Source: a virus
Reading direction: 5' to 3' (one strand)
DNA length: 30,094 nt
IMG/VR virus record: IMGVR_UViG_3300017989_000325
Location: 1-30,094 of that record
How positions within the stretch are numbered: the stretch's first letter is position 1; the number at the start of each line of letters is the position of its first letter. This document shows, in pieces, positions 20,959 to 23,368 of the stretch. Both the position numbers and the translations under genes were made by a program. The notes beneath the pieces were generated by a model, which was given only the letters and a program-made list of their open reading frames with translations, was not told where the DNA came from and searched no databases.

Positions 20959-21879
20959 TTATTTGAGGGGTGGCAATGCTTTGCTTGGCATATATTTCAA
21001 ATTTGTCTTGGAATTGGACCGGACTGCATTCCATGCTATGATGCTTCTGTATGCCAACTCGTGATTTGTCACTTTTCGGTAGAAAGATCCTTGTTGACAC
21101 CCATAGAGCCCTGATTTGATCAAAAACTCTCTGAGTTGCATCTCGGGCATGTCTTTCCTGAGTCCCTCTCCATCTCTCGTATTCTGCCAAAAGATCGTGG
21201 CGTCTTCGCTGTCTTTGCGATATGTCTTAATCATTATAGCCACCACAGCGGCCCTCGCCAGATGTTTCACCGAGGTTCGAGTGGCCTTGGCATTCCCTTC
21301 AAAGGTTAAAACGGAAGCTATAAAATCCCCTTCCAGTAAATATTTTGCCAGGTATTGCACGCGGACATCTTTCGTGATAGCGTTACGCTCATTGGTACTT
21401 CCTACGCCAGAAGTAAAACTGAATCTCGTATTAGATATGTTGTTCAAGAGGCCTGCTGCCGAAACCACCAAAGAGCTCACCCACAGAGGCCACGTCACAC
21501 CCAACGCTTCAGCCTCGACCTTGATCATTTCACGAAGAGATCTGGGCAGATATTCAAATTGACGATAAGCCTCCGACAACTCCCGCGCATTCTCAACTCT
21601 GAATTTTTCCAAGACGCACGGATATGTCTCACCTGACTTTATAATTGCTTGGCACTGATGTTGGCCATTTATCATAATGTCGGCGTTTAAATAGCTGGCA
21701 AAAGAAACCTCGGCATACCGGAACAGCCCTTGAACCATTTTTTTTGCAAGATCGTTTACATGGTGTGGCCGCAATGCTCTTTGTGTGCTATACGTGTTGA
21801 AGTTCAAATAATGTTTCGCCAAATCCGGCGACAACTCAACATTCCGACGTTCAATTAATCTTTTTCTTAAATCTAACAT
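20959..21879 (-). CDS. ParB-like domain protein with NGQHQ motif, phage type
   Basis: 306 aa with GGGAGG seven bases before the ATG at 21879. The N-terminal part (residues 15-90) has ELSPDLAKHYL...ALRPHHVNDLAKKMVQG and then ADIMINGQHQCQAII (71-79 core), which is the ParB/Srx-like sheet and its NGQHR-type motif with Gln in place of Arg. The remainder (100-306) is helical and matches nothing I recognise. Phage proteins of this form are often of unknown role, and some act as nucleases or regulators. It lies between another ParB-like gene and the large terminase. The DNA is more AT-rich than terL or portal, which suggests separate origin. Confidence 0.72.
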   Translation of the reverse strand: MLDLRKRLIERRNVELSPDLAKHYLNFNTYSTQRALRPHHVNDLAKKMVQGLFRYAEVSFASYLNADIMINGQHQCQAIIKSGETYPCVLEKFRVENARELSEAYRQFEYLPRSLREMIKVEAEALGVTWPLWVSSLVVSAAGLLNNISNTRFSFTSGVGSTNERNAITKDVRVQYLAKYLLEGDFIASVLTFEGNAKATRTSVKHLARAAVVAIMIKTYRKDSEDATIFWQNTRDGEGLRKDMPEMQLREFLIKSGLYGCQQGSFYRKVTNHELAYRSIIAWNAVRSNSKTNLKYMPSKALPPLK

Positions 21880-21900
21880 CTCGCATCCTCCCTTTCCCTT

Positions 21901-22668
21901 TCAAACATTGATGACATTGACGATCTGTTGAGCGCATGCCAAGGCGTATTCTTTCGACGTATTTTTCCATGCCTCCATCTTCACCCGCTGCATTTCCCAC
22001 AAAAATGCGTCGAATGCTTTTTGAAACGCCTCATCCCGCCGGTTGGCCCGCTCCCAGATCTCCCTTTCCCGCTCTCTCTGTTTTTTGGTTTTTTCTTTGG
22101 AATCAAGTCGCCTTTTTTGCGTTTCCTCATACGCTTTGTTGATGCTGATCTCCCCCTGTTCAATTGCCTGTTTGGTCTCATCGTCGCCGTGGTCTAAAAC
22201 AGTGCGAACTTGCTCTACCTTGCGGGCGGATATGCCCAGAGTTTGGGCGGTCTGTTCGGCGGATTTTGGATTTCGTGTTTCTGACTTGGCGCAAGATTGC
22301 GCCAAGTCTGTTCTCTCTCCCCGCTCTTTCCGCTTATCCATCCACTCAATACACTTCCACAGCTCCGCATCACTCAGGTTTCGCCGGTCCCTCTGCCGGT
22401 GGATGGCGTACTCGACCGCTGCATCGTCGGTATCGAATGATTTTTCAATCACAGGAACCTGCAATAAGCCGAGGGCCTGGGCTGCCATATAGCGGGTGTG
22501 GCCGTCCACGCAGACCAGCTTTCCGTTTCGCTTCCAAACAATAAGGGGCTCGGCTTCATCAAACCCATGATGTGTGATGTTCTCCTGAATCGCCCGAAGC
22601 GTTTTATTGTCAACCGGGAATATTTCGCTGAAGGGTTCCGCTATATGGACCTGGCCGATGTCGATCAT
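21901..22668 (-). CDS. ParB/sulfiredoxin-like domain protein with HTH
   Basis: 255 aa. Residues 5-90 are a ParB N-terminal domain: VHIAEPFSEIFPV, FDEAEPLIVW and the signature VDGHTRYMAA (55-60 core). Residues 115-185 have a KorB/ParB-type helix-turn-helix with AQTLGISARKVEQVRTVL and EQGEISINKAYEE. The C-terminal 70 residues are very charged and probably coiled coil (KEKTKKQREREREIWERA). It starts at 22668, overlapping the upstream gene by 4 nt (ATGA). The domain family covers partition proteins, CTP-using DNA clamps and some nucleases. With no ParA nearby, a role in regulation, packaging or host takeover is more likely than partition. Confidence 0.8.
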   Translation of the reverse strand: MIDIGQVHIAEPFSEIFPVDNKTLRAIQENITHHGFDEAEPLIVWKRNGKLVCVDGHTRYMAAQALGLLQVPVIEKSFDTDDAAVEYAIHRQRDRRNLSDAELWKCIEWMDKRKERGERTDLAQSCAKSETRNPKSAEQTAQTLGISARKVEQVRTVLDHGDDETKQAIEQGEISINKAYEETQKRRLDSKEKTKKQREREREIWERANRRDEAFQKAFDAFLWEMQRVKMEAWKNTSKEYALACAQQIVNVINV

Positions 22669-23069
22669 TGAGGTTTCTCCTTCTCTGCTGGTTTTATTCG
22701 TGCACCCACCACGCGGTTGACGCGCCAGGTGGAGCGGTTGGCGCCGATCATTTCGACCTCGATTTCTCCTACCTCTTGGTCGATTGCGTTGAAAAGCTCG
22801 TCTTTTTCCCTGGTGAATGCCGATAAGTGGGTTTCCAATATATCCATTACGGTTTGGTGGGGGGCGTTGTCGAAGAGTTCAACCACCTGGTTGAGTTGGC
22901 TAATCCAACACGACAGCCAAAACTCCAATTCGACGGCATACGTGTAGACCGCATAACCATAGGGCGACATGTAGACGGAATCGCCATCGGCAGAGATGAT
23001 TTCTTTTAGTTGGGTTTCGGGGCGGATGTAACAGGGGACAATACGCTCAGATGTGTCCTTTTTGGGCAT
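22665..23069 (-). CDS. Unknown 134-aa protein, first gene behind the structured leader
   Basis: 134 aa. The ATG at 23069 is chosen because AGGAGG lies seven bases upstream; the frame continues open to 23336 but crosses the structured leader. No known family is recognised. It has an aromatic helix (YTYAVELEFWLSCWISQLNQVV) and a long acidic helix (TVMDILETHLSAFTREKDEL), followed by EIEVEMIGANRSTWRVNRVVGARI, a possible beta tail. Its ribosome-binding site is part of a 15-nt sequence repeated at the 5' end of its own transcript, so its translation is the likely target of the leader RNA. It is translationally coupled to the ParB-like gene by ATGA. Confidence 0.75.
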   Translation of the reverse strand: MPKKDTSERIVPCYIRPETQLKEIISADGDSVYMSPYGYAVYTYAVELEFWLSCWISQLNQVVELFDNAPHQTVMDILETHLSAFTREKDELFNAIDQEVGEIEVEMIGANRSTWRVNRVVGARIKPAEKEKPQ

Positions 23070-23079
23070 GATGGAACCT

Positions 23080-23094
23080 CCTACGATTTGAGAG
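23080..23094 (-). repeat. 15-nt direct repeat copy 2, overlapping the ribosome-binding site
   Basis: Minus-strand CTCTCAAATCGTAGG, followed by AGG so that the end forms the Shine-Dalgarno of the 134-aa gene. 14 of 15 positions match copy 1 at 23260-23274. Confidence 0.9.
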
Positions 23095-23111
23095 TTGATA
23101 TCGCCGAGCCC

Positions 23112-23274
23112 TAAAAATAAAGCGGCCCGAGTGGTTCTCACGTCCGTAGGAACGCCCCAGACCTCGCGGTATCCGGGCCACTCGAGCCGCAACAGCTCGC
23201 TCTTAAATTGGCTTACCCCCCTTTCCGTAGCCGACATCAGACACGGAGACAAGGGCGCACCTACGGTTTGAGAG
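23112..23274 (-). ncRNA. Candidate structured leader RNA or small RNA with three-way junction and U-tract
   Basis: Stem P1 is 13 pairs with one G-U (23178-23190 with 23122-23134). P2 is CCCGG-AU-ACC closed by GCGA, a GNRA tetraloop, with GGU-CUGGG (23177 to 23056+100, that is 23177-23156). P3 is GCGUUC, loop CUAC, GGACGU (23155-23140). P1/P2 and P2/P3 join without spare bases and a GAGAA linker closes the junction. UUUAUUUUU follows P1 at once (23113-23121), so the fold can end transcription. Upstream, CCGUAG (23261-23266) can pair with CUACGG (23225-23230). The transcript would start near 23273. It is either a cis switch for the 134-aa operon, a stand-alone small RNA, or both. I do not recognise a known riboswitch class. 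Confidence 0.75.
23260..23274 (-). repeat. 15-nt direct repeat copy 1, at the predicted transcript start
   Basis: Minus-strand CTCTCAAACCGTAGG. Its last seven bases CCGTAGG are the exact complement of CCTACGG in the P3 hairpin (23144-23150). It lies at about +1 to +14 of the predicted transcript. Confidence 0.9.
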
Positions 23275-23279
23275 CTTCC

Positions 23280-23308
23280 TTTATAGCCCAAACCGGAGAT
23301 GCTGTCAA
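23280..23308 (-). promoter_or_regulatory. Consensus sigma-70 promoter for the leader RNA and 134-aa/ParB operon
   Basis: Minus-strand TTGACA (23303-23308), a spacer of exactly 17 bp, then TATAAA (23280-23285). This is the best promoter seen in the window. The expected start is near 23273, the first base region of the 15-nt repeat. Confidence 0.88.
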
Positions 23309-23339
23309 CCTTTTTTTGAACGATACAGTTTATCAATTT

Positions 23340-23368
23340 CTCTGCGCCTCTGCGTCTCTGCGCGAGAT
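23340..23368 (-). repeat. Dispersed repeat (copy D), touching the stop codon of the upstream gene
   Basis: Plus-strand ctctgcgcctctgcgtctct followed by gcgcgagat. It begins one base from the end of the small-terminase-like gene and precedes the promoter. Confidence 0.9.

What the first reader, a model, noticed from the sequence alone, without database searches (positions are those of the whole stretch)
23112..23274. Compact three-way-junction RNA with GNRA loop and U-tract behind a consensus promoter
Directly downstream of a TTGACA-17-TATAAA promoter, about 160 nt fold into a 13-bp P1, a P2 with GCGA tetraloop and a P3 hairpin, joined with no spare bases at two of three junction strands and followed at once by UUUAUUUUU. 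The paired positions include G-U pairs, which points to RNA rather than DNA function. It does not match a riboswitch class known to me. It may be a regulatory leader or a phage small RNA.
Basis: partly seen in the sequence, partly recalled or inferred. Interest (0 to 1): 0.88.

Follow-up and report, generated by a model that had tools for sequence, protein, structure and literature searches.

The report
C4-type antisense RNA in temperate phage
A temperate phage makes a small folded RNA whose loop and junction are complementary to the ribosome-binding site of the next gene; it is built like the C4 antisense "immunity" RNA of phage P1 and probably shuts that gene off in a lysogen, but public RNA-family models do not recognise this variant.

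Summary
In detail: minus strand, TTGACA-17-TATAAA at 23308-23280, three-way junction at 23190-23122 (13-bp P1, GCGA-capped P2, P3), then UUUAUUUUU. The junction folds far better than shuffles (z -5.0). It belongs to a real RNA family: 7 further distinct copies by pattern search and 28 more by covariance model (22 analysed), in phages and in Desulfobacterota, Nitrospinaceae-phylum and Fibrobacterota genomes; 24 of 26 pairs show two-sided compensatory change.

A 15-nt direct repeat (CUCUCAAAyCGUAGG) lies at the transcript's 5' end (23274-23260) and over the Shine-Dalgarno of the next gene (23094-23080). The P3 loop (UCCUACGG) and the P3/P1 joining strand (UGAGA) are complementary to both copies, and change with them in homologues. 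This is the a'b' / a1b1 / a2b2 layout of the C4 antisense RNA of phages P1/P7. Fold and logic match Rfam c4-2 (RF02944), but the window copy has no hit to c4-2 or C4; a close sister scores 33.6 bits (cut-off 41).

Most likely: a C4-type antisense repressor of an immunity-type operon in an integrase-bearing phage. In relatives the operon encodes Bro-N, ORF6N or Rha regulators; here an unknown 134-aa protein and a ParB-like protein.

The parts
23280..23308 (-). sigma-70-type promoter TTGACA-17-TATAAA
   Evidence: 11 of 12 consensus matches; exact TTGACA upstream of most homologues
23260..23274 (-). upstream target a1/b1 (CTCTCAAACCGTAGG; a1 23273-23269, b1 23266-23260), at the predicted transcript 5' end
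   Evidence: complementary to a' and b'; swapped-partner test p = 5e-5
23191..23259 (-). 5' hairpin domain between a1/b1 and the C4-like core (several homologues, e.g. L033 and L055, have a terminator-like hairpin with a U-run here; the window lacks the U-run)
23122..23190 (-). C4-type antisense RNA core, three-way junction: P1 23190-23178/23134-23122, P2 23177-23156, P3 23155-23140
   Evidence: folding z -5.0 and extensive two-sided compensatory change
23144..23151 (-). b' (UCCUACGG) in the P3 5' strand and loop, complementary to b1 and b2 (Shine-Dalgarno)
23136..23140 (-). a' (UGAGA) at the end of P3 and in the P3-P1 joining strand, complementary to a1 and a2
23113..23121 (-). U-tract UUUAUUUUU directly after P1: probable intrinsic terminator / 3' end of the small RNA
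   Evidence: U-rich stretch (at least 6 T in 8) in all 29 elements tested
23077..23094 (-). downstream target a2/b2 (CTCTCAAATCGTAGG; a2 23093-23089, b2 23085-23079) overlapping Shine-Dalgarno AGGAGG (23082-23077)
22665..23069 (-). 134-aa protein of unknown family, first gene under the predicted control
   Evidence: no Pfam, PHROG or NCBIfam match; AGGAGG 7 nt before ATG
21901..22668 (-). ParB-like 255-aa protein, second gene, overlaps the stop of the first
   Evidence: ParB_N E 3.7e-4 (below cut-off); phrog_4715 E 1.1e-18

Best explanation
It is a C4-type (c4-2-like) antisense RNA with its two sets of target sites in one transcription unit. The promoter at 23308-23280 makes a transcript whose first 15 nt are a1/b1. 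The three-way-junction RNA follows and can end at the U-tract after P1. Read-through transcripts go on into a2/b2 and the 134-aa / ParB-like operon. The core RNA pairs through b' (P3 loop, anti-Shine-Dalgarno) and a' (joining strand, specificity) with a2/b2 on read-through mRNA and blocks ribosome binding; a1/b1 is a second, competing or autoregulatory site. By analogy with P1 c4-icd-ant this would keep a lytic or antirepressor-type operon silent in a lysogen. Shown here: fold, covariation, complementarity that co-varies with the targets, promoter and U-tract sequences, integrase in the same phage. Inferred: transcription, RNA processing, action in trans, repression, and the role of the controlled genes.
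For: P3 loop and joining strand match a1/b1 and a2/b2 (7+5 Watson-Crick pairs each). Across 29 elements the joint a/b complementarity to the element's own upstream region averages 11.3 nt against 7.1 for swapped partners (largest of 20,000 permutations 8.9, p 5e-5); downstream 8.6 against 6.5 (p 5e-5). P1 yardstick: same order promoter-a1-b1-c4-a2-b2-icd-ant and same kind of three-way junction. A published summary gives the C4 mechanism: P1/P2/P3, RNase P cleavage, b' occluding the ribosome-binding site, a' giving specificity (PMC5320573). Rfam c4-2 hits sister L008 with the same fold (33.6 bits); L063 passes both c4-2 (45.6 bits, above cut-off) and model R1 (44.1 bits). First genes in relatives: Bro-N (four above cut-off), Rha, S24, HTH; ORF6N as second gene in L012. 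The same phage carries an integrase. R1 hits 18 of 395 Desulfobacterota genomes but 0 of 299 in the phylum of a Nitrosomonadales genome, so the model is not ringing at random.
Against: No transcript or repression data. The window copy itself is not detected by RF01695 or RF02944 even at E <= 10. Its controlled genes have no antirepressor domain. Several homologues have a1/b1 but no clear a2/b2 (L007, L010, L055 and others), so repression at a downstream ribosome-binding site cannot be the whole story for the family. No operator shared with the phage's putative repressor region was found.
Confidence: 0.82

Rival explanations
1. Cis-acting switch: in the nascent transcript a1/b1 folds back on a'/b' as a pseudoknot and competes with a2/b2 or alters termination at the U-tract; no separate trans-acting RNA is needed.
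For: a1/b1 is present in nearly all elements while a2/b2 is not; a1/b1 and a'/b' are in one molecule; predicted duplex energies are alike (-17.4 and -17.6 kcal/mol).
Against: In P1 the same layout works in trans (record annotation; PMC5320573, PMC8546580). In the window, L012, L008, L017, L033 and L064 the b' loop matches the ribosome-binding site, which a purely cis pseudoknot would not require.
Confidence: 0.1
2. Only a promoter with an intrinsic terminator (late-gene attenuator, like lambda PR'-tR') upstream of packaging genes; the RNA itself has no pairing function.
For: Consensus promoter, strong stem plus U-tract, position between a small-terminase-like gene and the large terminase.
Against: A terminator needs no three-way junction, conserved P2 core or target-matched loop; both co-vary. 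Homologues sit before Bro-N, Rha, integrase and unknown genes, not only packaging genes.
Confidence: 0.05
3. DNA-level element (cos/pac site, or a mobile repeat with a 15-bp target duplication).
For: Adjacent to terminase genes; 15-bp direct repeats flank it.
Against: Conserved G-U pairs (columns 36-53 G-U in 6 of 8; 6-66 U-G in 4 of 8) would be A-C mismatches on the other strand; the repeats are complementary to the loop and change with it in homologues; single copy in the record.
Confidence: 0.02

Closest known systems
c4-2 RNA (Rfam RF02944, clan CL00128)
   Same: Three-way junction, P2 with a UA bulge and GNRA loop, P3 with target-matching loop, 3' U-tract; RF02944 hits L079 (above cut-off), L080 and L081 (below) show by eye the same a'b'/a1b1 logic, L080 and L081 also a2b2; L063 is recognised by both models
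   Different: Window copy not recognised by RF02944; continuous 13-bp P1 without the internal loop of the c4-2 consensus; near-invariant P2 core CCCGGAUACCGYGAGGUCYGGGG in the window's subgroup
C4 antisense RNA of phages P1/P7 (Rfam RF01695) with c4-a1b1 (RF03163)
   Same: P1/P2/P3 junction, b' in the P3 loop and a' in the P3-P1 joining strand, a1b1 upstream, a2b2 at the ribosome-binding site, temperate phage
   Different: No detectable sequence similarity; ends in a U-tract instead of the CCACC end of P1 c4; shorter P1; a and b only about 2-3 nt apart at both target sites
P4 CI RNA with seqA/seqC; IsrK-anrP of Gifsy-1
   Same: Phage antisense/leader RNA with complementary sites on both sides, or a short terminated leader RNA upstream of an antirepressor-like gene
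   Different: Compared only from the literature (PMC4825925) and, for IsrK, a weak model match in P1

Membership tests
c4-2 (RF02944) | score at or above Rfam gathering cut-off (41 bits) | tested here: not met
   no hit for the window at E <= 10; sister L008 33.6 bits
c4-2 (RF02944) | three-way junction, P2 with UA bulge and GNRA loop, P3, U-tract | tested here: met
   alignment of L008 to the c4-2 model and identical layout in the window
c4-2 (RF02944) | continuum with recognised members | tested here: met
   L063 45.6 bits with RF02944 and 44.1 bits with model R1 built from the window's subgroup
C4 antisense RNA (RF01695) | Rfam C4 model score | tested here: not met
   no hit in the window at E <= 10; P1 control 68.8 bits
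C4 antisense RNA (functional sense) | b' loop complementary to the ribosome-binding site, a' to a site just upstream | tested here: met
C4 antisense RNA (functional sense) | second copy of the targets (a1b1) upstream of the RNA on the same transcript | tested here: met
   direct repeat 23274-23260 and 23094-23080
C4 antisense RNA (functional sense) | controls an antirepressor (ant) operon | tested here: inconclusive
   Bro-N/ORF6N/Rha in relatives; window genes unknown and ParB-like
C4 antisense RNA (functional sense) | RNase P processing at the P1 5' end | not testable with these tools
   needs RNA data
C4 antisense RNA (functional sense) | repression in trans giving phage immunity | not testable with these tools
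   needs genetics

The most novel reading that the evidence does not exclude
A subgroup of C4-type RNAs that end their own transcript and in this phage control a non-antirepressor operon (unknown protein plus ParB-like protein beside the terminase genes), so that C4-type antisense control has been recruited outside the classical immunity/antirepressor circuit; in members without a2/b2 the a1/b1 site at the transcript 5' end would be the real target, making the RNA a feedback controller of its own transcription unit.
Probability: 0.2. Interest if true: 0.62.

Novelty: new variant of a known kind. Interest (0 to 1): 0.5.

Why it matters
C4 antisense RNA is the textbook RNA immunity repressor of P1/P7. 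These results extend the same logic to phages and prophage-like loci of Desulfobacterota, Nitrospinaceae relatives and Fibrobacterota, where the existing models miss nearly all copies: of the 18 Desulfobacterota genomes that match model R1, only one matches RF02944 above its cut-off. They also give the c4-2 class a specific pairing mechanism that can be tested with compensatory mutants. The target rule (P3 loop = ribosome-binding site, joining strand = site just upstream) lets the specificity of each RNA be read from sequence.

Tried and rejected
Rfam at gathering threshold and at E <= 10: only chance-level hits for the window itself. blastn against phage and plasmid collections: nothing. TerS relatives L003/L004 give no homologue (L004 has two other small genes where the cassette sits; L003 ends too soon). 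Relaxing the tetraloop in the DNA pattern gave only chance matches. Most genome contigs pattern hits were chance; only L017 and L033 were real. A hammerhead-like CUGAUG...GAAA in the 5' hairpin was considered and dropped: the core position after CUGAUG and stem II do not fit. A target-site-duplication reading of the 15-bp repeats was dropped because the repeats match the loop in homologues. No operator shared with the putative repressor region of the same phage. Pairing of TTTAAGAG just before P1 with the repeat was not consistent between homologues. The Weinberg 2017 paper that presumably described c4-2 is not in the library, so I could not check whether the a/b pairing of c4-2 was already published.

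Full report
Check of the observation. The promoter, the 13-bp P1, the GCGA-capped P2, the P3 hairpin, the spacer-free junction strands and UUUAUUUUU are all present on the minus strand at the stated coordinates. The 79-nt junction plus tail folds at -42.6 kcal/mol, z -4.99 against dinucleotide shuffles; the 163-nt transcript z -2.91. The three-way junction is 69 nt (23190-23122); the other 84 nt are a 5' domain.

Homologues. Rfam gives nothing for the window. A DNA pattern for the P2 core found five further independent copies among viral contigs (L006, L007, L008, L010, L012; L011 is the same phage as the window, L009 repeats L006) and two in genomes (L017 Chitinispirillaceae, L033 Nitrospinaceae). 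All keep the junction and a U-rich tail while P1 changes sequence widely. With 8 distinct sequences P1 has 11 of 13 pairs with two-sided changes; over the whole structure 93% of cells pair against at most 52% in slid registers. A covariance model from these (R1) hit 18 of 395 Desulfobacterota genomes, 4 of 77 in the phylum of the Nitrospinaceae genome, 4 of 168 in the phylum of the Chitinispirillaceae genome and 0 of 299 in the phylum of a Nitrosomonadales genome. In the enlarged alignment 24 of 26 pairs have two-sided changes. G-U pairs at conserved positions mean that the minus-strand RNA is the selected molecule.

Anatomy beyond the fold. CTCTCAAACCGTAGG (23274-23260) and CTCTCAAATCGTAGG (23094-23080) are the only exact matches to this 15-mer in the window. 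The first lies at the predicted transcription start, the second runs into the Shine-Dalgarno AGGAGG, 7 nt before the ATG at 23069. The P3 region UCCUACGG (23151-23144) is complementary to CCGUAGG / CGUAGGA, and UGAGA (23140-23136, last base of P3 plus joining strand) to UCUCA. In the other core homologues both stretches have other sequences and still match their own sites: for example L008 UCUUGUGG/CCACAAGA with UUAGUA/UACUAA, and L010 CUUUGUG/CACAAAG with UCGAUA/UAUCGA (L012 matches better at its downstream site). A swapped-partner permutation test gives p 5e-5 for the joint a+b match upstream and 5e-5 downstream; 19 of 29 elements match their own upstream region better than any of the 28 others. 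A U-rich 3' end is present in 29 of 29 elements and TTGACA with a 16-18 nt spacer in most. Many homologues (for example L033, L055, L056, L073, L076, L077) also have a hairpin followed by a U-run between a1b1 and the core; the window, L006, L008 and L012 have G-rich hairpin-like sequence there without the U-run.

What it is. Phage P1 provides the yardstick: promoter - a1 - b1 - c4 - a2 - b2 - icd - ant, with b' in the P3 loop and a' in the joining strand. The mechanism is summarised in PMC5320573 and PMC8546580. The window element has the same order and geometry. Formally, RF01695 and RF02944 (c4-2) do not hit it, but RF02944 aligns to sister L008 helix by helix including the UA bulge (33.6 bits, cut-off 41), and L063 is recognised by both RF02944 and R1. 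The RF02944 hits L079-L081 (one above, two below the cut-off) show, by eye, the same a'/b' complementarity. I therefore call it a C4-type antisense RNA, a c4-2-like variant, without filing it as an Rfam c4-2 member.

What it controls. The first genes after the element in relatives include Bro-N proteins (L006, L008, L010, L064), Rha (L068), an S24 peptidase-like protein (L007) and an HTH protein (L076); in L012 a small ORF is followed by an ORF6N protein, a parallel of icd-ant; others are integrases or unknown. In the window the operon is a 134-aa orphan and a ParB-like protein. The nearly identical 45-kb contig carries an integrase and a candidate divergent regulator pair without Pfam match, so the phage is probably temperate.

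Limits. No expression data; the target genes are of unknown function; several homologues have no a2b2, so in them either the RNA acts through a1b1 or the downstream site was lost. I could not read the paper that introduced c4-2, so what is new about the a/b pairing in that class is uncertain.

Noticed in passing
L088:4792-7776 (same phage, outside the window): Reverse transcriptase (RVT_1, E 8.8e-12) next to a 532-aa protein ending in ...WRVVGFGGAAGSASAAGAFCVSAG...: looks like a diversity-generating retroelement; template and variable repeats not analysed.
   Followed up: partly
L088:12498-14962: Integrase and a putative divergent repressor / Cro-like pair; the 239-aa and 95-aa proteins have no Pfam match.
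   Followed up: partly
window 23338-23366, also near 18.7 kb and 20.9 kb: CGCAGAGACGCAGAGGCGCAGAG-type repeat between genes, resembling a widespread intergenic repeat that yields 'AETQRRRE'-like ORFs.
   Followed up: no
window 20959-23308: The promoter-RNA-134 aa-ParB-like-phrog_5931 cassette sits between a small-terminase-like gene and the large terminase; in relative L004 two other small genes occupy this place.
   Followed up: partly
homologues L033, L055, L056, L073, L076, L077, upstream of the core: Hairpin with U-run between a1b1 and the core, as in P1 c4-a1b1/isrK; no U-run in the window's subgroup.
   Followed up: partly
L012:2592-5948: c4-2-like element, small ORF, ORF6N protein, then small- and large-terminase homologues: the element is near packaging genes here too.
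   Followed up: no
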